DNA of 64,000 nt from Streptosporangiaceae bacterium NEAU-GS5 (GTDB lineage: Bacteria; Actinomycetota; Actinomycetes; Streptosporangiales; Streptosporangiaceae), in the NCBI GenBank assembly GCA_017592665.1, contig JAGFNW010000015.1, positions 1-64,000 of the forward strand, given 5' to 3'. Position 1 is the stretch's first letter, and every line of letters begins with the position of its first letter. A program made the translations under genes and the position numbers. Positions 32,708 to 56,393 of this stretch are shown piece after piece. Under the pieces are notes generated by a model that saw only the letters and a program-made list of their open reading frames with translations, was not told the DNA's origin and did no database searches.

Positions 32708-33571
32708 CTAGGCTTGCTCGATGCTCATCGCGACGCTGGTGGCGAAGTAGCGCTGGAAGGCCACGTACAGCAGGACGATCGGCAGGGTGCTGAGCACCGA
32801 CGCGGCCATGACCAGGTGCGTGGTCTGGGCCAGCGGATTGCCCTGGAGCGCGGCCAGGAAGACGGGATAGGTGTACTTCTCGTTCGAGCTGAGGAACACC
32901 AGCGGCACGAACAGGCTGTTCCACTGGCTGAGGAAGATCCAGATGGCGACGCCGGCGAGGCCGGGGCGCACGATCGGGCCGACCACACTCCACAGCGTCC
33001 GGAACGTGCCCGATCCGTCCAGCCGCGCCGCGTCGAGCACGCTGTTGGGCACGCTCGACTGGATGTACTGCCGCATCCACAGCATCGCGAACGGCAGCGC
33101 GAGGTTGGGCAGGATGATCGCGAGCAGGCTGTCCAGCAGGCCGACCCGGCTCATGAAGATGAACGTCGGCAGCAGCGTGACCGCGCCGGGAATCGTCATC
33201 GACATGAGCAGCAGCAGGAAGATGAAGTTCTTCCCGACGAACGTCATCTTGGCGAAGGCGTAACCGGCGGCGAACGCGAAGACCGTGCCGAAGGCCGTCA
33301 CCGTGACCGCCACGATCGTGCTGTTCAGCAGCGACCGCAGGAACAGGGTCTGGCTGAGCAGCTGCCGGAAGTTCTCGAACGAGAACGACGAGGGGATCAG
33401 CGACTGCTTCGCCGAGTAGATCTCCGCGGGTGTGCGCATCGAGGAGATGACGATCCACCACAGCGGGATCAACAGGGCGATCGCGATCCCCCCGAGCACG
33501 GTCATCGCGACGATCTGCTTCAGGCGGAACGCCCGCGAGCGGGCCGGCGCGTACGTCAGGTCAGCGGCCAT
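32708..33571 (-). CDS. CUT1 sugar ABC permease, MalG-like
   Basis: This 287-residue inner-membrane permease has six predicted spans. The EAA-type cytoplasmic loop is LDAARLDGSGTFRTLW, which docks the ATPase. Its start overlaps the partner permease by 11 nt and GH2 follows 15 nt after its stop. No ATPase is encoded in the operon; actinobacterial CUT1 systems usually share the MsiK-type ATPase encoded elsewhere. Confidence 0.88.
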   Translation of the reverse strand: MAADLTYAPARSRAFRLKQIVAMTVLGGIAIALLIPLWWIVISSMRTPAEIYSAKQSLIPSSFSFENFRQLLSQTLFLRSLLNSTIVAVTVTAFGTVFAFAAGYAFAKMTFVGKNFIFLLLLMSMTIPGAVTLLPTFIFMSRVGLLDSLLAIILPNLALPFAMLWMRQYIQSSVPNSVLDAARLDGSGTFRTLWSVVGPIVRPGLAGVAIWIFLSQWNSLFVPLVFLSSNEKYTYPVFLAALQGNPLAQTTHLVMAASVLSTLPIVLLYVAFQRYFATSVAMSIEQA

Positions 33572-34466
33572 TGCGACTCCAGCGCAGCTGTGCCAGCGCG
33601 ACGATGAACATCAGGAACGCCATCCCGTACGCCACGGCCGAGGCGTAGCCGAGGTTGAAGTCGACGAAGCCCTCGCGATAGAGGTAAGTCCCGAGGATCA
33701 ACCCGGATCGGCCGGGGCCGCCCGTGGTCTTGTACAGCAGGTAGGACTCCTCGAAGGCGTTGACGACACCGAAGGTCGTGATCACGCCGACGAACGCGAT
33801 GCTCGGCTTGGAGATGGGGACCATCACGCGCCAGAAGTAGTTCCAGCCGTTGACCCCGTCGACCAGGGCCGCCTCCCGCACCTGGGCCGGGAAGGCCTGC
33901 AGGGCGGCGAGCTGGACGACGACCATGTATCCGAAGTTCTTCCAGATCACGATCGACGAGATCAGCGGGATGGCGACCCCCTGGTCGATCAGGATGTTGA
34001 CCGGCTTCAGGCCGAGCGCGCTGAACGCCTGGCCGACCAGCCCGAAGGTGGGGTCCATCATCAGCAGGAAGATGATGCTGACCACGGCGAGCGAGGGCAG
34101 CACGGGCAGGAAGAAGGCCGTGCGCAGGAACGCGCGGAGCGGCCGGACGAACTTCGACTCGATGAACCAGGCCATGACCAGGCTGCCGAAGGCCAGGAAC
34201 GGCACCGTGAGCAGCCAGATCAGCATCGTGTGCCAGAGCGCCTGGCGCAGCGACGGATCCGCGGCCATCTCCTTGTAGTTGTCGACGCCGATGAAGTGGA
34301 GGTCGCCGACCCCCTGCCAGTCGGTGAAGCTCAGCCCGAAACTGCCGACCAGCGCGAACGTGTCGAAGATCAGGAAGCTGGCCACGAACGGAAGGATCAG
34401 AACGTAGGGTGCGGCGTTCCATCGTCTGGCCCGCCGCACCCCGCGTTCAGCGGGCCATGACCGCAT
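33561..34466 (-). CDS. CUT1 sugar ABC permease, MalF-like
   Basis: This 301-residue membrane protein has six spans beginning at about residue 20 and the EAA loop VREAALVDGVNGWNYFWRVM. It pairs with the downstream MalG-like permease. Its start overlaps the binding-protein gene by 20 nt. It transports an oligosaccharide or glycoside for the GH2 enzyme; specificity is inferred only. Confidence 0.88.
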   Translation of the reverse strand: MRSWPAERGVRRARRWNAAPYVLILPFVASFLIFDTFALVGSFGLSFTDWQGVGDLHFIGVDNYKEMAADPSLRQALWHTMLIWLLTVPFLAFGSLVMAWFIESKFVRPLRAFLRTAFFLPVLPSLAVVSIIFLLMMDPTFGLVGQAFSALGLKPVNILIDQGVAIPLISSIVIWKNFGYMVVVQLAALQAFPAQVREAALVDGVNGWNYFWRVMVPISKPSIAFVGVITTFGVVNAFEESYLLYKTTGGPGRSGLILGTYLYREGFVDFNLGYASAVAYGMAFLMFIVALAQLRWSRNGR

Positions 34467-35853
34467 TCTCCAACTCCGAGAGCAGCGTCGCCGCGTCCAT
34501 CTTCCCTTGCAGGAAGCCCGGCAGGAGCTGCTCGAACTCGTCGTCGATCTTCGTGCTCTTGGTGGTGACGTTGATCTGCGGCACCTCCTTGGCGAGCGCG
34601 GCGGCGTTGGCCGTCCACTTGTCGCCGCCGAAGAACGGGTCGGGCGCGGTGATGACCGGGTCGTTCGAAACCGGACCGTAGAGGGCCTCGAACTGGTTTC
34701 CGCCCTTCTCGTACGAGACCTCCCGACCCTCTACCGTCAGCAGCCAGAAGCTGAGGAACGCGAACGCGGCCTCGGGGTTCTTGCTCTGCTGAGTGACGAT
34801 GAGGCTGGTGCCGCCGCGGTTGCTGGACCGCGCGCCGCCGTCGTGGAAGGCCGGCAGGGGGATGCCGCCCCACTCGCCCGAGGTCTCCTTGGCGAACGTG
34901 CTCGGGTAGTACTTCCACCAGGCCGGCGCCATCCAGGTGGCCACGGAGCCCGAGGCCAGCGCCTTGACGGCGGCCTGGTCCGAGGCCACGTCGTTGACGG
35001 TGACGCCTTCGTCGCGCAGCCGCTTGATGAGGTTGAGCGCCTCGACGTTCTTCGGGTCGGTGAAGGTGGGGTCGCCCTTCGCGTCGAAGAACTGGCCGCC
35101 GTTCTGCTGGACGAGGGCGCGGAAGTCGTGTGACAGGCTCTCGATGCCGTTGGGCGGGGCGACCTGGTTCGACATCATCAGATGCGCCTGGCCGCCGGAG
35201 TCGGCCGCCAGCTTCTTGCCTGCGGCGATGAAGTCGTCCCAGGTCTTGAGGCTGCTGGGGTCGATGCCGTACTTCTTGAAGGTGTCGCGGCGGTAGGCCA
35301 GCTGCATGGGGCCGGCCTCCCACGGGACGGCCTGGATCGTGCCGTCCGGCCGGGTGACATTCTTGATCTTGAAGTCCGGGAAGTCGGCGACGTGCGGTTT
35401 CATGCACGCCGTCAGGTCGGTCAGCGGCATGTTCCATACGGAGGGCGCGTCGTCGTCCTGCCACTCGGAGATGTCGGGGGCGCCCTGTCCCGCGCGCATC
35501 GCGGTGAGCAGCTTGGTGCCGATGTCCTCTGCCCCGACGTCGACGACGTTGACTTTGACGTTGGGGTAGGCCTTGTTGAACTCGGGGACGATCGCGTTGG
35601 GGGCGTCATTGGTCCACCCCCAGAAGTTCAGCGTGCCGGAGAGCGTGGTGTTGGGCTTGTCCGCCGTCGCGAGCGGGGCCGTCGGGTTGGGGCAGGCGGG
35701 GCTGGCAGCGGCACCGGCGCCGCCGGCGGCGGCGGCGGGGGTCTTGCTCGTCGTGCCACCACCACAGGCCGCAGTGGCGGCCAGCAGGACGCATAGCGCC
35801 GACGCCGCTGCCGGTACAGTGGCGCGGCGCCTGCCTAGGGAGGACATCCTCAT
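34447..35853 (-). CDS. Sugar-binding lipoprotein of ABC transporter
   Basis: This 468-residue family 1 extracellular solute-binding protein has a signal peptide with an arginine-rich n-region and lipobox ending at C30 (ATAAC), followed by a Gly/Ala linker. ATG 35853 is chosen because AGGAG lies upstream and the signal peptide starts there. It is the first gene of the seven-gene operon, 95 bp downstream of the shared operator. Many Trp residues in the mature part fit carbohydrate stacking. Confidence 0.88.
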   Translation of the reverse strand: MRMSSLGRRRATVPAAASALCVLLAATAACGGGTTSKTPAAAAGGAGAAASPACPNPTAPLATADKPNTTLSGTLNFWGWTNDAPNAIVPEFNKAYPNVKVNVVDVGAEDIGTKLLTAMRAGQGAPDISEWQDDDAPSVWNMPLTDLTACMKPHVADFPDFKIKNVTRPDGTIQAVPWEAGPMQLAYRRDTFKKYGIDPSSLKTWDDFIAAGKKLAADSGGQAHLMMSNQVAPPNGIESLSHDFRALVQQNGGQFFDAKGDPTFTDPKNVEALNLIKRLRDEGVTVNDVASDQAAVKALASGSVATWMAPAWWKYYPSTFAKETSGEWGGIPLPAFHDGGARSSNRGGTSLIVTQQSKNPEAAFAFLSFWLLTVEGREVSYEKGGNQFEALYGPVSNDPVITAPDPFFGGDKWTANAAALAKEVPQINVTTKSTKIDDEFEQLLPGFLQGKMDAATLLSELENAVMAR

Positions 35854-35947
35854 GCCTGGTACTCCTGTCGGATTCCGGTAGCCCCGCCGAGCTGTCACGT
35901 TCGGCGGACGGACCCCCTTCTAGCTGGGACGCAAGGGCCCGTCGTAA

Positions 35948-40357: not shown

Positions 40358-41338
40358 TCACGAAGGGCGACGCCTCAAGCGGACCCGATCTCGGCCGGGC
40401 CAGTGCACGTCGGTGGCCCAGCCCAGCCGCTCGAACACGTGGATCACCGCGGCGGACGGATCGATCTGATTGCGCCGCATCCCGTGGCGGGCCGAGGTCG
40501 GGTTGCTGTGATGGCCGTTGTGCCAGCTCTCCCCGAACGACAGCAGGGCCAGCGGCCACAGGTTTGTCGAGCGGTCGTGGCGGCGTGTCTTGAAGGGCCT
40601 GTTGCCGACCATGTGGCACAGGGAGTTGACGCTCCATGTGACGTGCTGGAATAGGGCCACTCGGACGAGTCCGGCCCACAGGAAGGCGGTCAGCCCGCCG
40701 TACAGGGTGCCGGTGATCGCCCAGCCGGCCAGGAACGGCAGCGTCAGCGACACCGCGCACAACGCCGGGAAGGCGCGCGTCACCCGGGCCATCGCGGGAT
40801 CGTCCAGCAGATCGGGGGCATATCGGCGGGTATCGGTGGGATCATCGGCGAACATCCAGCCCAGGTGAGCATGGGCGAGCCCGCGCAGCTGGCCGCGCAT
40901 GCTGGTGCCATACCTGTATGGGGAGTGCGGATCGCCGGGACGGTCGGTGAAGGCGTGGTGACGGCGGTGGATCGCCACCCAATCGGTGAGATTGCCTTCG
41001 AAGCTCATCGATCCGGCGACCGCCAGGACCACCCGCAACCACGGCCGGGCGGTAAAGGATCCATGGGTGAACAACCGGTGGAATCCCACGGTCGTCCCGA
41101 GCCCGGTCACGATGTAGAGGGCCGCGGCCAGGAGCAGATCCGTGAGCGCGATCCCCGACCCCCACGCCAGGAAGATTCCGACGCCGAGCGCCACGAACGG
41201 CAGCACGACGATCGCACCAGTCAGCCCCATCTGAGCCGCGTTGGCGGGAGGGTGTTCGTCCGCGCCGGGAAAGGGTGATGTTCCGTCGTAGTCTGGCGGC
41301 CGCTCCACCGTTCGGATAGAAAGAGTGTCTTGTGTCAC
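40358..41338 (-). CDS. Acyl-CoA/acyl-lipid desaturase (stearoyl-CoA type)
   Basis: This 326-residue integral membrane di-iron desaturase has the three histidine boxes HRLFTH (87-92), HRRHH (124-128) and HNGHH (273-277) and four hydrophobic segments. It would insert a cis double bond, usually delta-9, to adjust membrane fluidity. The start is GTG 41338. It is 12 bp downstream of the UBP zinc-finger gene, so the two are probably co-transcribed. Confidence 0.87.
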   Translation of the reverse strand: MTQDTLSIRTVERPPDYDGTSPFPGADEHPPANAAQMGLTGAIVVLPFVALGVGIFLAWGSGIALTDLLLAAALYIVTGLGTTVGFHRLFTHGSFTARPWLRVVLAVAGSMSFEGNLTDWVAIHRRHHAFTDRPGDPHSPYRYGTSMRGQLRGLAHAHLGWMFADDPTDTRRYAPDLLDDPAMARVTRAFPALCAVSLTLPFLAGWAITGTLYGGLTAFLWAGLVRVALFQHVTWSVNSLCHMVGNRPFKTRRHDRSTNLWPLALLSFGESWHNGHHSNPTSARHGMRRNQIDPSAAVIHVFERLGWATDVHWPGRDRVRLRRRPS

Positions 41339-41350
41339 TTTTGTCCTAAT

Positions 41351-41656
41351 TCATACGTTTCGTTTGTGTACGTAGCACCATCGCCAGGACGATCCCTCGT
41401 CCAGCGCGGCGAAGACCGGGTGGTCCGTCTCCTCGTAGTGCGCCCGAGCGTGGCTGCCTGCCGAATCGTCGGAACAGGCCACCCAGCCGCAGGTGAGGCA
41501 GGCCAGCAAGCGCGTCCAGGTCAGACCGAGGAGCAGGCATTCCCCGCATTCGGGAGGTCCGTACTCCACGACGAAGAGCTGGTCGAGATGGTCACAGCGC
41601 GGTGCCTGGCCGTTCAGACCGGCGCGCGAGGTGGCGCTCATGCCTTTCGCGCCCAC
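41351..41656 (-). CDS. UBP-type zinc-finger protein
   Basis: This 101-residue protein carries a full UBP/HUb zinc finger: C21-x-H23, C37-x2-C40, C53-x2-C56, C61, H69, H73 and H79, ending WCYVHKRNV. In eukaryotes this fold binds the ubiquitin C-terminus; bacterial versions have no known ligand. GTG 41656 follows AGGGG at good distance. Its closeness to the desaturase suggests a linked function such as a redox partner or regulator. Confidence 0.8.
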   Translation of the reverse strand: MGAKGMSATSRAGLNGQAPRCDHLDQLFVVEYGPPECGECLLLGLTWTRLLACLTCGWVACSDDSAGSHARAHYEETDHPVFAALDEGSSWRWCYVHKRNV

Positions 41657-41758: not shown

Positions 41759-43255
41759 TCACCAGTGGCGATGGCCAGGAGGTCGCATCGCGTCGAGGAG
41801 GGCTTCGACGTCGGCGACGGCGAACCCGATGCGCGTGTCGCTGATTCCGTACGGCAGCCACAGAGAGCCCGCATGCAGCAGACCGCCGCACGAGTAGACG
41901 ACGTTGGGCACGTAGCCGTCGCGTTCGACGTCGGAGGGGGCGAGCAGGGGTTCCGGCAGCTCGGCGATGATGCGCTCGGGGTGGTGCAGATCGAGGAGCA
42001 GAGCTCCGATGACGTATCGGCGCATCGGGCCGACCCCGTGGGTGAGCACCAGCCAGCCGCGGTCGGTTTCCAGCGGAGATCCGCAGTTGCCGACCTGGAT
42101 CAGCTCCCAACTGCTGTGCGGCGTGTGCAGAGGGGCGACGTGCTGCCAGCGGTTCTGGTCATCGAGGACGGCCAGGCCGCTGGTCTCGCCGTCGGAGCGG
42201 CACAGCGCGAGATGGCGCCCGCCGACCGTACGGGGGAACAGCGCCACACCCTTGTTACGGGCCGCGGGCCCGCGTAGCGGGGCCATTTCGAACTGCTGGA
42301 AGTCGCTGGTGGTCAACATTCGGCCGGCGATGTGGAGTCCGTCGTAGGCCGTGTATGTGGCGTGGTAGACCGATTCGCCGTCGTCGCCGATGAACTCGAC
42401 GAAGCGGGCGTCTTCCATGCCGTTGGATTCCGACGGCGCCGATGGCCACAGCACGCGGCGGCCGAGGGGGACCTCGGCGGGAAAGCTCACCGAATAGTCA
42501 TCGGTGATCATGCGGCGCAGCTGTTCGAGGGTGCCGTGCGTGGTGGTCCGGCTGAGCAGATCGGCGGGCAGACGGCCGAGCACCTGCTCGAATTCGGCGT
42601 CGTCGAAAAGCCCGGGCAGCGACTCCAGAACGGTCGCGGACACCTCGTTGTCGCGGCCCGATTCGGCGAGTCCGGCGGCCAGCAGGTCGTGACGGTGCCG
42701 GGCGCCGGCGCGATGGCCCGTGTGCAGCGGCCCGGCTCGTTCTGTGACGACAAGGCCGTTCTCCGGGCCCAGCACCGCCGTGACGAAGCCGATGGACGAC
42801 AGATGCCCCTCGCCGATCTGGCGCAGGCTGATGACCACGCGCGACTGGCCGGGCGCCAACGCGGACTGGTCGGGGTGCCGCACGATGGACGGATTGCAGA
42901 GCGCGGCGCCCTCTACCGAGTATTCGTGGCTGAAATGGGCGCCGACGAGCAGCCGCCCCGCCGGCGACAGATCGGCGGACTGCGGCACGCGATGCCGGAC
43001 CAGGTCGTAGTGGTGCCGGAAGGTCGCGTCGAGGTCGTGATGACGGTCGCCGAACAGCCGCACCGTCTGTTCCAGCAGCCGGTCGATCTCCTTCTCGTCG
43101 AGCCCGGCGATGCGTTCGATCAGAGCCGAGGCGCGGGTGCGTTCCAGCACGCCGTCCTCGCCGGGAACGAAGAGCTTGATGATGACGCGGCGCGGGTCGG
43201 GCGCCAAGTCATGCTTCAGCCGCGTGGACAGGCCTGCTTCCGTCACGACAACCAC
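41759..43255 (-). CDS. GH130-like glycosidase/phosphorylase
   Basis: This 498-residue protein has a five-bladed beta-propeller composition with GMEDARFVEF and YTAYDG motifs typical of GH130, enzymes that phosphorolyse or hydrolyse beta-mannosides. About 120 extra residues at the N-terminus precede the propeller. It is cytoplasmic. GTG 43255 or GTG 43246 are both possible; the latter gives the 4-nt overlap usual in this operon. It is the third gene after GT4 and an alpha/alpha-barrel-like protein, which suggests turnover of a mannose-containing glycan or storage oligosaccharide. Confidence 0.75.
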   Translation of the reverse strand: MVVVTEAGLSTRLKHDLAPDPRRVIIKLFVPGEDGVLERTRASALIERIAGLDEKEIDRLLEQTVRLFGDRHHDLDATFRHHYDLVRHRVPQSADLSPAGRLLVGAHFSHEYSVEGAALCNPSIVRHPDQSALAPGQSRVVISLRQIGEGHLSSIGFVTAVLGPENGLVVTERAGPLHTGHRAGARHRHDLLAAGLAESGRDNEVSATVLESLPGLFDDAEFEQVLGRLPADLLSRTTTHGTLEQLRRMITDDYSVSFPAEVPLGRRVLWPSAPSESNGMEDARFVEFIGDDGESVYHATYTAYDGLHIAGRMLTTSDFQQFEMAPLRGPAARNKGVALFPRTVGGRHLALCRSDGETSGLAVLDDQNRWQHVAPLHTPHSSWELIQVGNCGSPLETDRGWLVLTHGVGPMRRYVIGALLLDLHHPERIIAELPEPLLAPSDVERDGYVPNVVYSCGGLLHAGSLWLPYGISDTRIGFAVADVEALLDAMRPPGHRHW

Positions 43256-44247
43256 CGCGCGTGCTGCATCGTGGAGATGAGGGCGAGCGTCGACTCGGCG
43301 CCCTGGTTGAGACTCGGCCCAAACTCGGTCAAACCGTCATATCCACCACCGGTCGCCGGATCCCACATCGCCTGGTCGGCGTCGTTGTCGCCGTGGAACC
43401 ACGCCACGACCTGCCGAATCCTCGCGGTCCAGCTTGGGTCGTCGGTGATGGCCGCCGCGGTGGCGCAGGCATCGGCGAGAGCCGCGGCCTCGATCGGCTG
43501 CTGATCGAAGCGGGTCCGTACGTCGAGGCGTTCCCAGCCGGCGACGGAAATCAGCGACATGTGCCCGCCTGTCGTTTGGATGTCACACAACCAGGTCAGC
43601 ATCCGAAGCCCGGCCGCGAGCAGGTCCGCGTCACCACCGAGGTGGCCCGCGGCGATGGCCACCTCGGCGAGAGCGGCGTTGGCGTACGTGAGGCGCTGCT
43701 GCGGCCACGGCCACAGCGGAGATCCACCAGGGTCGCCGACCGCCTTGGCGGCATCGGTGAGCAGGGCGGCGGCAGAGGCGTTGCCGGGGTCCCGGCGCAG
43801 CACTTCGGCGGCGCCGAGTCCGGCGAACGCCATGGCGCGCGGGTGCGGCGATCGCTGCCCCGCGCCGCGGGTGAAGGCGAACATCGCTTCGCGGCGGACC
43901 CAGGAATCGGGGCTGCGCGCCGCCGCGGTTCCGAGGCCCCACATGGCCCGCCCCCACCAATCGCCGAGCCCGGGCCGGTCGGTCCAGCGCCGCTCATAGG
44001 AGAGCCGGTTGTGGAACGCCCCCGAGGAGTCCTGGGCGTGCGTGAGGAAGGCCAGATAGCACTCGGCGAGGCGCCGTACGTCGGATGACGGGCCAGGTTC
44101 GCGGCTGGTGACCACCAGGCCGCGGGCGACGTCGTCGGTGCAGTAGCCGTGCTGGCGCCGGGCCACTGCGTGTCGCGCGTGCTCGAACAGGCCGGTGTCG
44201 TCGGTCAGCCGTATGAGGTGCGCGAAACTCGGCGCGGGCGCGCTCAT
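43243..44247 (-). CDS. Putative (alpha/alpha)6-barrel carbohydrate-active protein
   Basis: This 334-residue, all-helical protein has repeated aromatic-rich motifs (TDDVARGL, GDWWGRAMWGLG, WPWPQQRLTYANA) like six-hairpin glycosidases. The start overlaps the GT4 stop (ATGA) and the end overlaps GH130. Relatives sit in the same three-gene order in other actinobacteria and are sometimes called glycosyltransferases without proof. No catalytic pair can be named. Confidence 0.6.
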   Translation of the reverse strand: MSAPAPSFAHLIRLTDDTGLFEHARHAVARRQHGYCTDDVARGLVVTSREPGPSSDVRRLAECYLAFLTHAQDSSGAFHNRLSYERRWTDRPGLGDWWGRAMWGLGTAAARSPDSWVRREAMFAFTRGAGQRSPHPRAMAFAGLGAAEVLRRDPGNASAAALLTDAAKAVGDPGGSPLWPWPQQRLTYANAALAEVAIAAGHLGGDADLLAAGLRMLTWLCDIQTTGGHMSLISVAGWERLDVRTRFDQQPIEAAALADACATAAAITDDPSWTARIRQVVAWFHGDNDADQAMWDPATGGGYDGLTEFGPSLNQGAESTLALISTMQHARWLS

Positions 44248-45383
44248 ACTCGCGCCGCGGCAAGCCCCGGTGGGCGTGCCGCCAGAAGGCGATGGGCGAG
44301 CCTGTCATATCGTTCGGCGACCGCCGGCCACAGCAGGGTCGGGGCGAGGGCGCGGGCGCGGCCGGTGAGGCTCGCCGCCAGGCCGGGTTCGGTGAGGATC
44401 CTGCGTACGGCGGCGGCCAGCGCCGCGGCGTCCTGATGCGGGACCACCAGCCCTGGTCCGTGGGTGAGCAGCTCTACCGCGTGCGGGAAGGACGTGGCCA
44501 CGACCGGGATCTCGGCGGCGATGGCCTCGATGAGAACGCCGGAGGTGACCTGCTCGTGAGAGTCGTACGGGAGTACGACCACGTCGGCCGAGCGGATGAG
44601 GCGGCCGAGGGAGTCGTTGTCCCGGTAGATGGGGTCATATCGGACGTTGTGCGAGACACCGAGTCGTACACCCAGGCTCTGCAGCGCCGATCGATAGGCC
44701 TCGCCCTGATGGTCGAACACCTTGGGGTGTGTCATGCCGGCGACGGTGTAGGCCGGAGCGGGGGTCAGATCGCTCAGGTGCGCGAGCGCCCGTAGCGCCC
44801 ATTCGATGCCCTTGCCCGGGCCGAGCAGCCCCCAGGTGAGCAGGTGCGGACGATGGCCGCGCCGCGACGGACGGCCGCCGTAGGCGCCGGCGCCGTGCGG
44901 GATGACGCTCACCTTGCCCGGGTCGACCGCGTAGCCGGCCAGCAGCCGGTCACGGGCCGTGCGGGTCATGGTGACGACCGCCCCGGCCGTCCGCACGATC
45001 CGCTCGAGCAGCTCCCGCTGCCGGCGGGTGGGGCTGGTGAGCACGGTGTGCAGGACCACGATGCTGGGCGCCACGAGCCGGTGCAGCAGCGGCAGGACGT
45101 CTTCACCGTCCGGGCCGGGATAGATGCCGTACTCGTGCTGGACGATGGCGACGTCGAATTCGTCCAGCGCGGCCGCCGCCTCCTGCCAGCCGCCGAGGTG
45201 CCCGGCGTGCCAGGTGTGCACGACTTCGGACCTGGACTGGGTGTCGTCGGTGTCAGCGGCGACGCGTACGATTCCGCCGCCCGCACCGCCCTGGCCGAGG
45301 TGGGCGGCCAACGCGGAATTGAACGTGGCCAGCCCGCATTGGGTGGGCGGATGTGTGCTGAGGAAGCCATAGGAAATGGCCAT
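44244..45383 (-). CDS. GT4-family glycosyltransferase
   Basis: This 379-residue GT-B fold enzyme has N-terminal GFLSTHPPTQCGLATF and a C-terminal nucleotide-sugar site (PGKVSVIPHGAG, YDSHEQVTSGVLIEA with the E-x7-E pattern). Retaining sugar transfer from a nucleotide sugar is expected. ATG 45383 has GGAAGG upstream. It is the first gene of the GT4/alpha-barrel/GH130 unit, with 275 bp to the divergent AlkD-like gene; that gap shows no clear regulatory motif. Confidence 0.82.
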   Translation of the reverse strand: MAISYGFLSTHPPTQCGLATFNSALAAHLGQGGAGGGIVRVAADTDDTQSRSEVVHTWHAGHLGGWQEAAAALDEFDVAIVQHEYGIYPGPDGEDVLPLLHRLVAPSIVVLHTVLTSPTRRQRELLERIVRTAGAVVTMTRTARDRLLAGYAVDPGKVSVIPHGAGAYGGRPSRRGHRPHLLTWGLLGPGKGIEWALRALAHLSDLTPAPAYTVAGMTHPKVFDHQGEAYRSALQSLGVRLGVSHNVRYDPIYRDNDSLGRLIRSADVVVLPYDSHEQVTSGVLIEAIAAEIPVVATSFPHAVELLTHGPGLVVPHQDAAALAAAVRRILTEPGLAASLTGRARALAPTLLWPAVAERYDRLAHRLLAARPPGLAAARV

Positions 45384-45658
45384 GCTGTGCCTTCCGGTCA
45401 TCCGGCGGCTTTTCCGGTTGGGGATGGCCGCCTCACGCGATGAAGGCGCCCAACCGGCCAGCGTGGATGGCGATTGGAACGAGTTCGCGAAGCTTCGCAT
45501 CTTCAGGGATGCCGATATGCCGCGAACCTGCGCCGGGCTCAGTGGAGCCATCGGCATTTCGACTGTATCAGCACGCCGCGACCGGGCACTTTGCCGACTT
45601 CGGGCCACGCGTGCTTTCCTCGTAGGCTGAATCGCGCCCGCATGGACAGGAGGCTGAG

Positions 45659-48405: not shown

Positions 48406-48525
48406 GCACACGCCCACCACGCCTCTCACCCGGTATCTGGGTGGCGTTCTTCGGTGACGCGATGGCCGGCGGCGCCATGCGGCATCATGAACGTGACGAC
48501 ATGACCAGGGGGCTTGGGCACAGGA

Positions 48526-51213
48526 ATGTTGGACACGTCGGAACTTCCGTTACTGGAGCGTGAAGCGGCGCTGGCGGCGCTCGTCGGATATGCGGATGAG
48601 GCCCGTCGCGGCCACGGCCGGCTTGTCCTCGTCGCGGGCGAGGCGGGCGTCGGCAAGTCGGCCCTGGTCGAGAAACTTCAGCGGCAGTTGCCGAAGGCGC
48701 GCTGGGCGTGGGGCGCGTGCGACGGGCTGTTCACGCCGCGACCGCTCGGGCCCCTGTTCGACCTCGCCGATCAGCTGGGCGGCCCGCTGCTCGGCCTGTG
48801 CCGTGACGGAACGCGCGGCGTCGACCGCACAGAGCTGTTCCGGACCCTGTTACAGCAGGTCAGCGAACCGGCGGCGCTGGATGTGGTGGTCGTGGAGGAC
48901 GTCCACTGGGCGGATGAGGCCACGCTCGATCTGCTCAGGTACGTCGGCCGGCGGCTGCGTGACGCCTCGGTCCTGCTCATCGCCACTTATCGCGACGATG
49001 CCCACTCGTGGGAGGATCCGCTGTCGGTCGCCTTGGGCGATCTCGTGACCCTGCGGTCCACTCGCCGGATCGGGCTGTCTCCTCTGTCCGAACGTGCTGT
49101 GGCCGTGCTGGCGGAGGGCAGCGGCCGGAATCCAGCCGAGTTGTTCCGGCTCACCGGCGGCAATCCGTTCTACGTGACCGAGGTTTTGCAGACGGGCGCG
49201 GAGGTCGTGCCGACGTCGGCGCGAGACGCCGTCCTGTCCCGTGTCGCCCGATTGGCTCCCGAGACCCACGCGGTGCTGGACGTCGCGGCGCTGACCGGCT
49301 CGCGGTTCGAGTTGCGGCTGCTGGAGTCGGCCGCCGAATGCTCCCCGGCGATCGTCGACGAGTTGCTGGCGTCCGGCCTGCTGGTGGAGGACGGAGTCCT
49401 GCTGAGATTCCGCCACGAGATCGCCCGGCTGGCGGTCGAACAGTCGATCGCGGCGCATCGCAGCGGCGCCATCCACTGCCGGATCCTTCCCGCCCTCTAC
49501 GCCGTGGGCTGCGACGACGACGCCCTGTTGGCCTATCACGCGGAGGCCGCCGGCGATGGCGCGGCCGTGCTGCGCCACGCGCCCGCGGCGGCACGGCGGG
49601 CGGCCACGTTGGGCGCGCATCGCGAGGCGGCGGTGCAGTTACGGCGGGCACTGCGGTTCGCGAGCGCGGAGGCCGATCCGTCCTCGGTCGCGGGGCTGCT
49701 GGACGAGTTGGCCGATGAGCTGGCGCTGGGCGACAACTGGCCGGATGCCGCCGCCGCGTGTGACCGGGCGCTGGCGCTGTGGCGCGCGGCGGGTGACCGG
49801 CTACGGGAAGGCGACAGCCTCCGGCGGCACGCCCGCGCCATGTGGAACCTGTGCCGTGGTGACGACGCGGTCGCCGCCGGCGAGGCCGCGATCGCGATCC
49901 TCGAACCGCTGGGGCCCACCGTTGAGCTGGCCTGGGCGTACGCGACCTTGGCCAACCGCCGGATGCTCTGCGCCGAGGACGAGGAGGCGACCCGGCTTGC
50001 GCTGCGGGCACAGGAGATCGCCGAACGCGTCGGCGCGACCGATGTGTACAGCGACGCGCTCATAACTCAGGCGGCGTCCGCCACGCGCACCGTCCACAAC
50101 GCGGGCGAGGACGACTGGAGCGTGCAGATGGCCCGCGGGTTGCGGATCGCGCTTTCCGGTGGCCATCACGATCAGGTGGGCCGCGCGTACGCCAATTTCT
50201 GCGGCGCATATTGCGACAAGCGGCAATACGCCGAGGCCGAGCCGTGCTTCGCGGAGGGCATCGCCTACTGCGACGAGCGCGAGCTGACGACGTTCACCAC
50301 GTTCCTACGCGGCGAGCAGGCCAACATGCTGGACGGGGTGGGCCGGTGGTCCGAGGCGGTCACCCTGAGCGAGGAGATCCTCGCGGTGGCCGGCCCCGCG
50401 CCCGCCAACCGGCTGTGCGCCTTGCGGAGGCTCGGGACCATTCGCGCGCGCCGTGGCGAGCCCGGCGCATGGGAGCTTCTCGACGAGGCCGCCGCGGCCG
50501 CGGAAGCGATCGGCCAGCCGGTCGACATGGTGGCCGTGCGGCTCGCCCGCGCCGAGGCTTATTGGCTGGCGGGAAAGACGGAGGAGGCCATGGCCGAGGC
50601 CGAGCGCGCCGATGACGTGGCTGAAACCTGTGACGACTGGCTCCGCGGGGCGACCGCGGTCTGGCTGGCGAGGACCGGATCCGTCCGTCTCCCGCGCGGG
50701 CCGGTCGCCGAGCCCTACCGGCTCGAGCTCGAGAGTGACCTGGTGGGCGCCGCCGAGTCATGGACCGGGCTCGGCTGTCCCTATCCAGCGGCGCTCGCCT
50801 TGACCGGAACGCAGGGGATACGCGAGCTGCGGGACGCGCAGAAGATCTTCCTCGACCTCGGTGCCACGCCTGCCGCGCGGATCGCCGGGCAGCGGCTGCG
50901 TCTGCTGGATCCGCGGGCCGCGTCGGCCGCACGGCGATCCCCCGCGCCGTCGCACCCGTACGGCCTGACCACGCGTGAGCTCGAAGTGCTGGCCCTGATC
51001 CGCAATGCGCACACCAATGCCCAGATCGCCGCCAAGCTGTTCATTTCCACGAAGACGGTGGGGCATCACGTCTCGGCGATTCTGGCCAAGATGAACGCTC
51101 CGAATCGGAGCGCCGCCGCGCACGAGGCCGCGAGGCTGGACCTGGTCGGCGTCCCGCAAGTCGAGGATGCGGAGTCAAACGGGCGGTCTCCGGGAGGCGG
51201 CGTTCCAGCCTGA
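48526..51213 (+). CDS. LAL-type LuxR regulator 1 (AAA ATPase plus TPR)
   Basis: This 895-residue protein has Walker A GEAGVGKS (38-45) and Walker B VVVVEDVHWAD, winged-helix and TPR-like middle, and a C-terminal LuxR HTH (LTTRELEVLALIRNAHTNAQ). ATG 48526 is chosen over TTG 48514. LAL proteins are large ATP-dependent activators of catabolism or antibiotic genes. The last 173 nt are antisense to the end of the MFS gene. Confidence 0.85.
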   Translation: MLDTSELPLLEREAALAALVGYADEARRGHGRLVLVAGEAGVGKSALVEKLQRQLPKARWAWGACDGLFTPRPLGPLFDLADQLGGPLLGLCRDGTRGVDRTELFRTLLQQVSEPAALDVVVVEDVHWADEATLDLLRYVGRRLRDASVLLIATYRDDAHSWEDPLSVALGDLVTLRSTRRIGLSPLSERAVAVLAEGSGRNPAELFRLTGGNPFYVTEVLQTGAEVVPTSARDAVLSRVARLAPETHAVLDVAALTGSRFELRLLESAAECSPAIVDELLASGLLVEDGVLLRFRHEIARLAVEQSIAAHRSGAIHCRILPALYAVGCDDDALLAYHAEAAGDGAAVLRHAPAAARRAATLGAHREAAVQLRRALRFASAEADPSSVAGLLDELADELALGDNWPDAAAACDRALALWRAAGDRLREGDSLRRHARAMWNLCRGDDAVAAGEAAIAILEPLGPTVELAWAYATLANRRMLCAEDEEATRLALRAQEIAERVGATDVYSDALITQAASATRTVHNAGEDDWSVQMARGLRIALSGGHHDQVGRAYANFCGAYCDKRQYAEAEPCFAEGIAYCDERELTTFTTFLRGEQANMLDGVGRWSEAVTLSEEILAVAGPAPANRLCALRRLGTIRARRGEPGAWELLDEAAAAAEAIGQPVDMVAVRLARAEAYWLAGKTEEAMAEAERADDVAETCDDWLRGATAVWLARTGSVRLPRGPVAEPYRLELESDLVGAAESWTGLGCPYPAALALTGTQGIRELRDAQKIFLDLGATPAARIAGQRLRLLDPRAASAARRSPAPSHPYGLTTRELEVLALIRNAHTNAQIAAKLFISTKTVGHHVSAILAKMNAPNRSAAAHEAARLDLVGVPQVEDAESNGRSPGGGVPA

Positions 51214-53350: not shown

Positions 53351-55909
53351 CTATTTTCCCCTGAACAGCCCGAGCCGTACGGCCTGCGAGGCCGCCTCGG
53401 CCCGGGTCGAAGCGCCGATCTTGGCGAGCATCGCCGAGACGTGGTGATCGACCGTCTTGACCGAGATGAACAGGACCGCGGCGATCTCGGCGTTGGTGCG
53501 CCCGGCGTGGATCAGCTCAAGGACCTGCCATTCGCGCCGGGTCAGGCCGAGCGGGTGGGCACGCGTGTCGGACCGCGCGCCCACCGGGATCGAGCGGATG
53601 CCGAGCCGCCGCATGCGCTTGCGCGTGATCCGCGCCGCGGCCTCCGCGCCCAGCTCCATGAACATCTCGAGCGCGGCGCGCAACCCGTCGCCGTCTGTCC
53701 CGTCGAAGAGCGCGAGCCCGGCGTCGTAGGGGCAGCCGAGATCCTGCCAGGCACCGGCGGCGCCGGAGAAATCCTCCTCCAGCATCAGCCGGTAGGGCTC
53801 GGCCAGCGCGCCGTCGGCCCTGCGCTCGGAGCCCGTGCGGCGCAGCCACACGGCGACGGCGCCGAGCTCCCAGTCGTCGAAGCGATCGGCGTACTCGACG
53901 AGCGACTCGGCCTCGGCGCGGGCCGCGGCATCCTGGCCCTCCAGCCAGAAGGCCTCGGCCCGGGCGATCCGCACCGGAGCGATCCACTGCGGCTCGTCGA
54001 GGCTGTCGGCCGACGCCGCCGCCTCGTCCAGGAATTCCCACGGTCCGGCCGAGCCCCGCCGGGCCCGTACGAGGCCGAGCCCGATGAGCGGGTTGAGCCG
54101 GTTGATCGGTGAGGCCTCCTCGGCCAGCAGCTCGGCGGACAGGGCCGCCGCCTCGGTCCACCGGCCGGTGCGCTCCAGGGCGACGGTCCGGGCTCCGCGA
54201 AGGCCCGTCGCGTACGTCGCCAGGTCGTTCTCCAGGCAGTCGGCGAGCCCGGCGTCGAAGTACTGCTCGGCCTCGGCGAACCGGCGCTCGGCGCAGTAGG
54301 TGCTGTACAGGTTCACGTACGCGCGCCCGCGCGCCAGCGGCAGATCGCGGGCGATGGCCGTGTCGAGGGCGGTCAGCAGGTCGGCCGTCCACTCCTCGCC
54401 CAGGGTGGCCTTGGCGGCCGAGATCGTGATCAGGGCGTCGGCCAGCACGTCGGGCACGTCCAGCTTGCCTGCCATCTCCTGTGCCCGCCGCCCGAGCCGG
54501 ATGGCCTCCTCGTTCTCCCTGGCCAGCATGGTGAAGGCGGCCAGGTTCGCATACGCCCAGGCGAGCGCCGTGCCTTCGCCGAGTGGCTCGAGGACGGCGA
54601 CGGCGCCCTGCGCGGCGATGTAGGCGTCGTCTTCGCGGCACAGCCGCCAGTAGGCGCGCGACAGCCGGCGCAGCGCCTCGCCCTCGCGCTCGCGGTCGGC
54701 CACCGATCGCCACAGGCCGAGCGCCTGCTCCCCCGCCTCCGTGGCGTCCTCCCAGCGGTCGATGTGGGAGACCTCGATCGAGTAGTCCTCGTACAGCTGC
54801 GCCCGCTCCGCCTCGTCGAGGCCGGCTGAGAAGCGGAGGGCGCGCTCGAGCTGGGCCGCGGCCTCGCGGTGCGATGCCAGGTCGGCGGCGGCGCGCGCGG
54901 CACGGCGCGCGTGCTCGCCGGTGGACGGGTCGTCGGCGGCCTCGGCGTGGTGGGCCAGCCGGGAGTCGTCGTCGCAGCCGAGGGAGCGCAGCATGGCCAG
55001 GATGCGGGCGTGGATGGCGGGGCGGCGATAGGGCGGCACCGACTCCTCCACGGCCAGCCGGGCGATCTCGTGCCGGAATCGCACGGGGGCGCCGCCGATC
55101 AGGCCGGTCGCCACGATCTCGTCGACGCTGTGCCGGTCGGCGAGCGCGGCCAGCTCGCGCATCTCGATCTGGTTGCCGAGCAGCGCCGCGACCTCGAGCG
55201 CCGCACGCGCCGTCTCCCCCAGCGGCACGGCACGCGCGAGCACGGCGTCGCGCGCGGACTCCGGCACGGTCTGGATCCCCGACCGGATCACTTCGGTGAC
55301 GAAGAACGGGTTTCCACTGGTCAGCCGGTGCAGCTCGGCCGCGGGGAGGCCGCTGTCGGCGGCCAGGATCGCCACGGCGCGAAGCGACAGCGGCGCCAGC
55401 CCGATCCGCCGGACGCCCCGGTGCCTGGCCAGTTCGCCGAGGGCCTGCCGCAGCGGATGCCGCACCGGCAGGGAGTCGTCGCGATAGGTCACCAGGATCA
55501 GGGCATGCGTGTTGCGCACCCGGCGGCCGAGGAAGCGCAGCATGTCGACGGTCGCCTCGTCGGCCCAGTGCGCGTCCTCGACGACGACCACGCTGAAGTC
55601 GGCGAGCGAGGCCAAAAGCGCGTCGAACATGTCGTCGCGCCCGGCTCCCTCCCGCCACAGCCGCAGCAGGTCACCGCCGATCTGGTCGGCGAGGTCGAAC
55701 AGGGGCGCGAGCGGCCGCGGGGTGAAGAGCCCGTCACACGCCCCCCAGGACCACCTGGCCCCGGGCGTCTGCCGGGCGAACTCCTCGACAAGCGCTGATT
55801 TGCCTACCCCAGCCTCGCCGGAGATCAGAACAAGCCGTCCCTCTCCACGCTCCGCTTCGGCCGCGTATTCGGCGAGGGAACCAAGAGGAGCGCCGCGATC
55901 CAGCAGCAT
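53351..55909 (-). CDS. LAL-type LuxR regulator 2
   Basis: This 852-residue paralogue of the gene at 48526 shares GEAGVGKS (31-38), RWSWGACDGLFTPRPLAPLF and a C-terminal HTH (LTRREWQVLELIHAGRTNAE). ATG 55909 matches the paralogue start. It probably activates the MerR/MFS genes it precedes, with a gap of five bases. Confidence 0.84.
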   Translation of the reverse strand: MLLDRGAPLGSLAEYAAEAERGEGRLVLISGEAGVGKSALVEEFARQTPGARWSWGACDGLFTPRPLAPLFDLADQIGGDLLRLWREGAGRDDMFDALLASLADFSVVVVEDAHWADEATVDMLRFLGRRVRNTHALILVTYRDDSLPVRHPLRQALGELARHRGVRRIGLAPLSLRAVAILAADSGLPAAELHRLTSGNPFFVTEVIRSGIQTVPESARDAVLARAVPLGETARAALEVAALLGNQIEMRELAALADRHSVDEIVATGLIGGAPVRFRHEIARLAVEESVPPYRRPAIHARILAMLRSLGCDDDSRLAHHAEAADDPSTGEHARRAARAAADLASHREAAAQLERALRFSAGLDEAERAQLYEDYSIEVSHIDRWEDATEAGEQALGLWRSVADREREGEALRRLSRAYWRLCREDDAYIAAQGAVAVLEPLGEGTALAWAYANLAAFTMLARENEEAIRLGRRAQEMAGKLDVPDVLADALITISAAKATLGEEWTADLLTALDTAIARDLPLARGRAYVNLYSTYCAERRFAEAEQYFDAGLADCLENDLATYATGLRGARTVALERTGRWTEAAALSAELLAEEASPINRLNPLIGLGLVRARRGSAGPWEFLDEAAASADSLDEPQWIAPVRIARAEAFWLEGQDAAARAEAESLVEYADRFDDWELGAVAVWLRRTGSERRADGALAEPYRLMLEEDFSGAAGAWQDLGCPYDAGLALFDGTDGDGLRAALEMFMELGAEAAARITRKRMRRLGIRSIPVGARSDTRAHPLGLTRREWQVLELIHAGRTNAEIAAVLFISVKTVDHHVSAMLAKIGASTRAEAASQAVRLGLFRGK

Positions 55910-56012
55910 TCCTACATTCTCTTCGCTCGCCCGCTTCGAATGGGGCTGCCCGCGACTAATGGGCTCGATTCGAAACACACCCCGTGGAAAGCGCCCGTCA
56001 GGTCGGCGCTTG

Positions 56013-56393
56013 TCAGGCGGAGCGGCGTTCCTCGCTGACCAGGACGGCGATCCGTTCGACCGTGGATCGCGACTCGATGTGCAGGCGGGCCACGTCGAGG
56101 CCCTCATCGGCCAGTACGGCGAGCAGCGCCAGATGGCCGACCGCGTAGATCGAGATATAGCCGCTGCGGCAGCGGATCACGACCTCGCGGAGCTCCCCCA
56201 TTCCCACTTCCATGCCGGTGCGCTTACCGAGGCCGAGCGAGGCGGCGGCGAGCGCGGACACCACTTCCGGGCGGGCGCCGTCGGTGTCGGCCACCATCAG
56301 CAGGCCGTCGACCGTGGCGATCGCCGATTCCAGTACTCCCGTGACGTTGTCTCGTAGGGCGTGCAGTTCAGCGAGTAATGCTTGTTGTGCCAT
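56013..56393 (-). CDS. Roadblock/LC7-domain protein
   Basis: This 126-residue protein has a Roadblock/LC7 fold (NVTGVLESAIATVDGLLMVA, HLALLAVLADEGLDVARLHI). In other bacteria such proteins act as GTPase-activating or scaffold partners of MglA-like GTPases; none is nearby. It is three bases after the DUF4388 gene. ATG 56393. Confidence 0.75.
   Translation of the reverse strand: MAQQALLAELHALRDNVTGVLESAIATVDGLLMVADTDGARPEVVSALAAASLGLGKRTGMEVGMGELREVVIRCRSGYISIYAVGHLALLAVLADEGLDVARLHIESRSTVERIAVLVSEERRSA

What the first reader, a model, noticed from the sequence alone, without database searches (positions are those of the whole stretch)
41759..45383. GT4, alpha-barrel-like protein and GH130 in one overlapping operon
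A synthase and a mannoside-acting degradative enzyme are translated together with an uncharacterised helical-barrel protein. This suggests a cycle for a mannose-containing intracellular or cell-wall glycan that has not been named.
Basis: partly seen in the sequence, partly recalled or inferred. Interest (0 to 1): 0.55.

Follow-up and report, generated by a model that had tools for sequence, protein, structure and literature searches.

The report
Widespread unstudied bacterial mannose-glycan gene module
Three overlapping genes here belong to a module that many unrelated bacteria carry, in some of them beside mannose-supply genes; it most likely builds and trims a mannose-containing molecule inside the cell, but the molecule is unknown and nothing has been shown by experiment.

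Summary
In detail: a GT4-like protein (GT4a, 44244-45383), an (alpha/alpha)6-barrel protein (HB, 43243-44247) and a long GH130 (41759-43246), all minus strand, overlap by 4 bp at both joins. They form a conserved module. In 296 sampled genomes of the class HB matched in 42 and the GH130 in 38, all 38 among the 42. GT4 adjoins HB in 78 of 80 named loci, GH130 in 64. On plasmids of Alphaproteobacteria, one Fusobacteriota and one Deinococcota record, GT4a and HB are one fused protein. In 4 of 11 such loci ManA or ManC stands directly beside it, and an AGE epimerase in 2 more, which supports mannose. A canonical second GT4 (GT4b) is a frequent partner in relatives but was not found in this genome. 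HB matched no Pfam or NCBIfam family. Best reading: a cytosolic mannose-glycoside building and remodelling unit of unknown product.

The parts
44244..45383 (-). GT4-like GT-B protein (GT4a), 379 aa, first gene of the operon
   Evidence: Pfam PF13692/PF00534 over cut-off; ATG and overlap; L184 and Q276-x-T-S-G in 19 of 19 aligned relatives
45390..45395 (-). GGAAGG, likely ribosome-binding site 6 nt before the GT4a ATG
   Evidence: sequence read directly
43243..44247 (-). (alpha/alpha)6-barrel protein HB, 334 aa; ATGA overlap with GT4a
   Evidence: no Pfam/NCBIfam family at E<=1; AlphaFold2 pLDDT 95.1; 7tem Z 36.3; D38, D39, R42, E253, D304, E318 in 24 of 24
41759..43246 (-). Long GH130 (495 aa from GTG 43246, or 498 aa from GTG 43255) with N-terminal helical part and helical insert; GTGA overlap with HB
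   Evidence: PF04041; AlphaFold2 pLDDT 91.9; Z 36.3-36.6 to beta-1,2-mannoside phosphorylases; start and overlap

Best explanation
The locus is one copy of a conserved cytosolic module that builds and remodels a mannose-containing glycoside. SHOWN by computation: GT4a, HB and the long GH130 are linked as genes and by co-occurrence; GT4a and HB act as one unit (fused in other phyla); some relatives sit beside mannose-phosphate or GDP-mannose genes. INFERRED: GT4a-HB processes the growing glycoside, HB acting as an (alpha/alpha)6 glycosidase (candidate acid/base residues E318 and D38/D39) or as an acceptor-holding domain; in many relatives the canonical GT4b supplies a transferase step. INFERRED: the GH130 adds or removes a beta-linked, probably beta-1,2, mannose at a chain end, with alpha-mannose-1-phosphate/phosphate or a related reaction. 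INFERRED and weakest: the product is a soluble intracellular oligosaccharide used as a reserve or under stress.
For: Co-occurrence: HB 42 of 296, GH130 38 of 296, all 38 among the 42; Fisher p 8.6e-44; 25 of 27 HB genera, p 2.8e-23; relatedness not corrected. Adjacency 78 and 64 of 80. Of 16 loci without an adjacent same-strand GH130, 10 lie in genomes that hold the long form. GT4a-HB in one CDS with a GH130 close by in 11 of 13 opened plasmid loci. Directly beside it ManA (Devosia, Sinorhizobium) or ManC (two Sphingomonas) in 4 of 11, AGE (two Rhizobium) in 2 of 11; HAD-IIB proteins within a few kb match the phosphomannomutase model over cut-off in 3 of 4 run against Pfam. Fold ranks of the GH130: beta-1,2-mannoside phosphorylases Z 36.3-36.6, beta-1,4 enzymes 33.0-34.2, mannosidase-type structures 30.7-32.2, Leishmania GT108 20.4-21.9. 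K335, tied to beta-1,2 specificity in PMC4599007, 38 of 38.
Against: No substrate or product is known. ManA, ManC, HAD and AGE queries from the plasmid loci matched 0 of 80 named actinobacterial loci, and the sphingomonad ManC had no match in this genome (no positive control). The two Sphingomonas loci and the two Rhizobium loci are near-duplicates, so the mannose adjacencies are fewer independent events than they look; AGE enzymes are not specific to mannose; the HAD proteins match the general Hydrolase_3 model too. 5 of the 11 loci have no such gene directly beside them. Plasmid records with a GH130 match but no HB exist (49 records against 27), e.g.. GT4a departs from canonical donor residues. 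NCBIfam equivalog cut-offs for beta-1,2-mannobiose phosphorylase are not reached (125.7 of 550; 116.4 of 450). Absences are soft, as at most 7 or 5 candidates per genome were scored. The stress context is anecdotal.
Confidence: 0.45

Rival explanations
1. Salvage: the proteins break down imported beta-1,2-mannosides to alpha-mannose-1-phosphate for GDP-mannose, as proposed for the Teth514_1785-1796 cluster of Thermoanaerobacter (PMC4264767).
For: Closest folds are those phosphorylases. GH130, ManC and GT4 sit together there (passages), and ManC adjoins the module in two sphingomonads. In the window, ORFs that look by eye like a sugar ABC permease and a substrate-binding protein lie at 33561-35898 on the same strand, about 6 kb beyond the GH130 (not tested by family search).
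Against: Several other genes lie between. Among the three most frequent neighbour groups of 80 loci (GT4b in 34, GH13 in 14, an unidentified group in 13) none was recognised as a transporter; groups in 8 loci or fewer were not all identified. The GT4a-HB fusion has no clear role in salvage, and Q387/E396 differ.
Confidence: 0.15
2. The long GH130 is a sugar-nucleotide-dependent beta-mannosyltransferase, a bacterial parallel of the Leishmania GT108 mannogen enzymes; its extra helical parts would bind the nucleotide.
For: Invariant Q387 and E396 replace R/K and K of phosphorylases; R23, R41, R71 and H72 of the N-terminal part are invariant, 19 of 19; ManC beside the module in two sphingomonads; a synthetic GH130 would remove the anomeric mismatch.
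Against: GT108 structures score far lower (Z 20.4-21.9) than phosphorylases (about 36); R353 and H406 are kept; no nucleotide site was tested.
Confidence: 0.15
3. Envelope glycan: the module makes or edits a lipid-linked or cell-wall mannan.
For: Actinomycetes have mannosylated envelopes (general knowledge).
Against: No exporter or lipid-carrier gene was recognised among the most frequent neighbour groups (not exhaustive); the same module occurs in Alphaproteobacteria, Ilyobacter and Deinococcus with very different envelopes; no signal peptide apparent.
Confidence: 0.15
4. HB is a sugar 2-epimerase/isomerase of the AGE type rather than a glycosidase-like domain.
For: AGE-family epimerases are among the best folds (Z 24.6-27.7).
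Against: Only H10 and H23 are invariant His in 24 aligned HB sequences, while AGE enzymes have active-site His at 247/248 (titles of 8wbu and 7ag4). A true AGE gene sits beside GT4a-HB in two Rhizobium.
Confidence: 0.08

Closest known systems
Teth514_1785-1796 cluster, Thermoanaerobacter sp. X514 (GT4, ManC, two GH130 beta-1,2-mannoside phosphorylases; PMC4264767, passages)
   Same: GH130 of the beta-1,2 type with a GT4 and, in two sphingomonad relatives of the module, ManC; Ilyobacter also has a short plus a long GH130
   Different: No HB is named there (two hypothetical proteins, not checked here); the GH130 chains are 303-313 residues against 495; ABC transporter genes are part of the cluster
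beta-1,2-mannoside phosphorylases Lin0857 (5B0P), Teth514_1789 (7FIP), Teth514_1788 (9FJ8)
   Same: Five-bladed propeller, Z about 36, 25-30 % identity over the structural alignment; Asp acid, Lys, Arg, His kept
   Different: Long form has an N-terminal helical part and a helical insert; Q387 and E396 instead of R/K and K
YPO2471 (7TEM), uncharacterised protein described as exported
   Same: Same fold, Z 36.3; DDxAR and NxGAEST motifs shared
   Different: 18 % identity; lacks the FDQQPxE motif
Leishmania GT108 mannogen enzymes (6Q50, 6Q4Z)
   Same: Propeller fold; beta-1,2-mannan chemistry (PMC8950772, passages)
   Different: Z only 20.4-21.9; no link to GT4 or HB known to me
GH9 exo-glucosaminidases and GH76 alpha-mannanases
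   Same: (alpha/alpha)6 fold (Z up to 29 and 26); acidic residues early and before the last helix (GH9 D50 and E420)
   Different: No sequence signal against GH9 (hhalign probability 1.5 %); GH76 not tested by profile

Membership tests
GH130 | Pfam PF04041 over curated cut-off | tested here: met
   86.3 bits, cut-off 26
GH130 | five-bladed beta-propeller fold with the invariant general-acid Asp | tested here: met
   Z 36.3-36.6 to 7fip/5b0p/9fj8; D282 38 of 38
GH130 beta-1,2-mannoside phosphorylase | Lys that contacts O2 of the +1 mannose | tested here: met
   K335 38 of 38, aligned with Lys of 9fj8, 7fip and 5b0p; role from PMC4599007 section 20
GH130 beta-1,2-mannoside phosphorylase | basic residues that hold phosphate | tested here: inconclusive
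   R353 and H406 38 of 38, but Q387 (37 of 38) and E396 (38 of 38) replace basic residues; which of these bind phosphate was not read from a structure
GH130 beta-1,2-mannoside phosphorylase | NCBIfam equivalog cut-off | tested here: not met
   NF050092 125.7 of 550; NF052550 116.4 of 450
GH130 beta-1,2-mannosidase (BT3780 type) | Glu pair in place of the basic residues | tested here: inconclusive
   R353 and Q387 are not Glu, but D355, E357 and E396 lie near; no residue alignment to 5a7v was printed; NF058598 26.5 of 550
GT4 | Pfam glycosyltransferase group-1/GT4 domains over cut-off | tested here: met
   PF13692, PF00534, PF13439
GT4 | E-x7-E donor motif and Arg of the G-R...K-G loop (motifs recalled) | tested here: not met
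   L184 19 of 19 aligns with Arg of GT4b; E284 (second Glu; present in the window protein) 11 of 19; first Glu is Q276 19 of 19 by counting back 8 from E284, while the alignment program placed GT4b's EPFGL elsewhere with a gap
AGE 2-epimerase | active-site histidines in the later part of the chain | tested here: not met
   only H10 and H23 invariant in 24 sequences
GH9 | Pfam PF00759 match or profile similarity | tested here: not met
   no Pfam hit at E<=1; hhalign probability 1.5 % against 14 GH9 domains
GT108 | membership by sequence or closest fold | tested here: inconclusive
   Z 20.4-21.9, below every GH130 row; none among the 18 PDB matches at E<=1
Teth514-type mannoside cluster | ManC and transporter genes in the same cluster | tested here: not met
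   no such gene directly beside the window operon; plasmid-derived ManC query 0 of 80 loci; met for ManC only in two sphingomonads
any of these | measured activity | not testable with these tools
   no biochemistry possible

The most novel reading that the evidence does not exclude
A bacterial counterpart of mannogen: a widespread, cytosolic, GDP-mannose-fed oligomannoside (reserve or protectant) system, with a GT4a-HB fusion enzyme of a new (alpha/alpha)6 glycosidase family and a long GH130 that works as a beta-1,2-mannosyl transferase or phosphorylase with a rebuilt phosphate site.
Probability: 0.2. Interest if true: 0.8.

Novelty: new variant of a known kind. Interest (0 to 1): 0.5.

Why it matters
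An uncharacterised carbohydrate module that matched in 42 of 296 sampled genomes of one class and on plasmids of three further phyla points to a glycan that may never have been isolated. Its middle protein matched no Pfam or NCBIfam family. If the product is an intracellular mannoside, it would be a carbohydrate reserve or protectant outside glycogen and trehalose, testable with three or four purified proteins.

Tried and rejected
All-against-all comparison of every open frame round the 80 loci timed out; a G+C-filtered gene set was used instead, so weak or unusual neighbours may be missed. The AGE-epimerase reading of HB was set aside for lack of the histidines. GH9 membership of HB was rejected at sequence level; only the fold is shared. 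An attempt to map the two catalytic Glu of BT3780 onto this GH130 through a Bacteroidota protein failed: that protein is a close relative of Uhgb_MS, and the five printed alignments were Uhgb_MS (three), Lin0857 and 7fip; a second try printed only Lin0857. Both AlphaFold2 models rest on alignments of loci from the actinobacterial searches only (38 and 44 rows). The helical parts of the GH130 were not folded or searched alone, and fold searches covered the PDB only.

Literature: no paper on the triad was seen in the listings (YPO2471, 0 papers; 25 of 43 shown; 0 papers; 12 of 105 shown); the library is open-licence PMC only, so this is weak evidence of novelty. PMC4264767 and PMC8950772 were read as passages; PMC4599007 as passages plus sections 19 and 20. 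All others were seen only in listings.
Full report
Observation. Three minus-strand frames lie end to end: GT4a 44244-45383, HB 43243-44247, GH130 41759-43246. Both joins are 4-bp overlaps (ATGA and GTGA), and the first gene has GGAAGG 6 nt before its ATG. The GT4 and GH130 labels pass Pfam cut-offs; HB matches no Pfam or NCBIfam family at E<=1. One GH130 was found in this genome.

Not chance. HB matched in 42 of 296 sampled genomes of the class (E<=1e-10) and the GH130 in 38 of 296 (E<=1e-40); all 38 are among the 42 (Fisher p 8.6e-44; genera 25 of 27 among 115, p 2.8e-23). Limits: relatedness is not corrected for, at most 7 or 5 candidates per genome were scored, and 5 of the 38 GH130 matches are partial or in pieces (G005, G015, G074, G147, G172). 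Among the best 80 named loci the figures are 78 and 64; 2 of the 78 GT4 matches are cut by a contig end. The two sets overlap in at least 4 loci. Sixteen of the 80 lack an adjacent same-strand GH130. Their genomes hold the long form in 10, only short GH130 relatives in 2 and none in 4. In 1 of the 10 (L112) it lies nearby on the other strand, and at least 3 of the 10 genomes have a second HB locus that does have an adjacent GH130 (L051, L054, L057).

Across phyla. On plasmids HB matched in 27 records; I opened 13. Eleven hold GT4 and HB in one annotated CDS: Devosia, Ilyobacter, Deinococcus, Rhizobium daejeonense, Novosphingobium pentaromativorans, Sphingomonas sanxanigenens, N. resinovorum, Sinorhizobium, S. 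koreensis, Rhizobium SL42 and S. paucimobilis; for the first five the single open frame was checked. All 11 have a GH130 close by: downstream in ten (about 0.5 kb away in S. sanxanigenens; behind a second GT4 in Deinococcus, where it is annotated hypothetical and only the propeller part matches) and upstream in Ilyobacter. The other two are Croceicoccus, with a free-standing HB and, 14 to 24 kb away, a GT4a relative, a GH130 and ManA, and S. paeninsulae, whose HB match runs across several short frames.

Mannose link. Directly beside the fusion or its GH130 stand an annotated class I mannose-6-phosphate isomerase (Devosia, Sinorhizobium), mannose-1-phosphate guanylyltransferase (S. koreensis, S. 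paucimobilis, near-identical; TIGR01479 402.8 bits over cut-off for the one tested) or an AGE epimerase (two near-identical Rhizobium). That is 4 of 11 with a mannose gene and 2 of 11 with AGE; the other 5 have none directly beside them. The Sinorhizobium ManA does not reach the TIGR00218 cut-off (50.6 of 116.2), so its label rests on the record. HAD-IIB proteins a few kb away match the phosphomannomutase model over cut-off in 3 of 4 run against Pfam, but also the general Hydrolase_3 model. Queries for these four gene types matched 0 of 80 named actinobacterial loci, and the sphingomonad ManC had no match in this genome (no positive control, and actinobacteria may use another type).

GH130. 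The model (pLDDT 91.9) ranks beta-1,2-mannoside phosphorylases first (Z 36.3-36.6), then Uhgb_MS (35.5-35.7), beta-1,4 enzymes (33.0-34.2), BT3780 and other mannosidase-type structures (30.7-32.2) and Leishmania GT108 (20.4-21.9). D282, K335, R353 and H406 are in 38 of 38 rows. Q387 (37 of 38; 19 of 19 in the set with other phyla) and E396 (38 of 38) stand where 9fj8, 5b0p and Uhgb_MS have Arg and Lys, and 7fip has Lys at both. D355 is also in 38 of 38. So this is a GH130 by family and beta-1,2-like by fold, with a changed nucleophile side; phosphorolysis, hydrolysis and transfer are all open. It carries an N-terminal helical part and a helical insert (about 41-107 and 189-251), with R23, R41, R71 and H72 in 19 of 19.

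HB. The model (pLDDT 95.1) matches 7tem (Z 36.3), GH9-type exo-glucosaminidase structures (3h7l and 6gdt 29; 5dgq/5dgr 24.9), AGE-family epimerases (24.6-27.7) and GH76 mannanases (24.7-26.2). D38, D39, R42, E253, D304 and E318 are in 24 of 24 rows including other phyla. Aligned GH9 domains have invariant D50 and E420, likewise early and near the end, but the profile comparison is not significant; the catalytic analogy is inference. Histidines at the later positions that AGE enzymes use are not conserved.

GT4a and GT4b. GT4a has L184 in 19 of 19 where GT4b has Arg, and Q276-x-T-S-G in 19 of 19; counting back from E284 (kept in the window protein and in 11 of 19), Q276 stands for the first Glu of the recalled E-x7-E motif, although the alignment program did not place it so. 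GT4b, with GRIHPDKG and EPFGLSVVE, matched in 37 of 80 named loci and lies beside the module in Ilyobacter and Deinococcus. In the 296-genome set, hits of 50 % identity or more fall in 25 genomes, 24 of which have HB (my count). This genome gave only a weak, partial match and none at E<=1e-40, so the window shows a three-gene form.

Mechanism. Best reading: a cytosolic mannoside-building and remodelling unit (0.45). Either the GH130 adds or trims a separate beta-mannosyl end, or it is itself the synthase, or GT4a is not a mannosyltransferase.

Evidence against unity. GH130 matches also occur on plasmid records without HB: 49 records against 27, though the 49 include short and distant relatives. 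Opened examples are Rhizorhabdus, near copper-resistance genes, and Asticcacaulis; their chromosomes were not searched. In the class sample 4 genomes have HB without the GH130 (G006, G031, G046, G282).

Novelty. No paper on this module was seen in the listings named under Tried and rejected. The nearest described cluster is Teth514_1785-1796 (PMC4264767, passages).

Noticed in passing
window 40358-41656, minus strand: A zf-UBP protein and a fatty acid desaturase follow the operon; relatives of the desaturase lie within the fetched stretch of 5 of 80 HB loci and of zf-UBP in 4 of 80.
   Followed up: partly
L060:5633-6631, L033:2315-3382, L034:8093-9103: A canonical second GT4 (GT4b) accompanies the module in three phyla but was not found in this genome.
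   Followed up: partly
L122 and L126 (Sphingomonas plasmids): The module with ManC sits near DnaK, GrpE and J-domain genes in both, and Hsp20 genes in L122, as if in a stress-tolerance island.
   Followed up: no
L123 (Rhizorhabdus) and hits H48-H53: A long GH130 on records without HB, with near-identical match figures in six sphingomonad plasmid records, near copper-resistance genes in the one opened.
   Followed up: no
L128 (Sphingomonas paeninsulae): HB appears broken into several short frames while GT4, GH130 and an annotated phosphomannose isomerase remain on the plasmid.
   Followed up: no
window 48514-51213 (+) and 53351-56107 (-): Two large ORFs that look by eye like LuxR-type ATP-binding regulators, a few kb from the operon; no family search was made.
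   Followed up: no
window 33561-35898, minus strand: ORFs that look by eye like a sugar ABC permease and substrate-binding protein, about 6 kb beyond the GH130; no family search was made.
   Followed up: no
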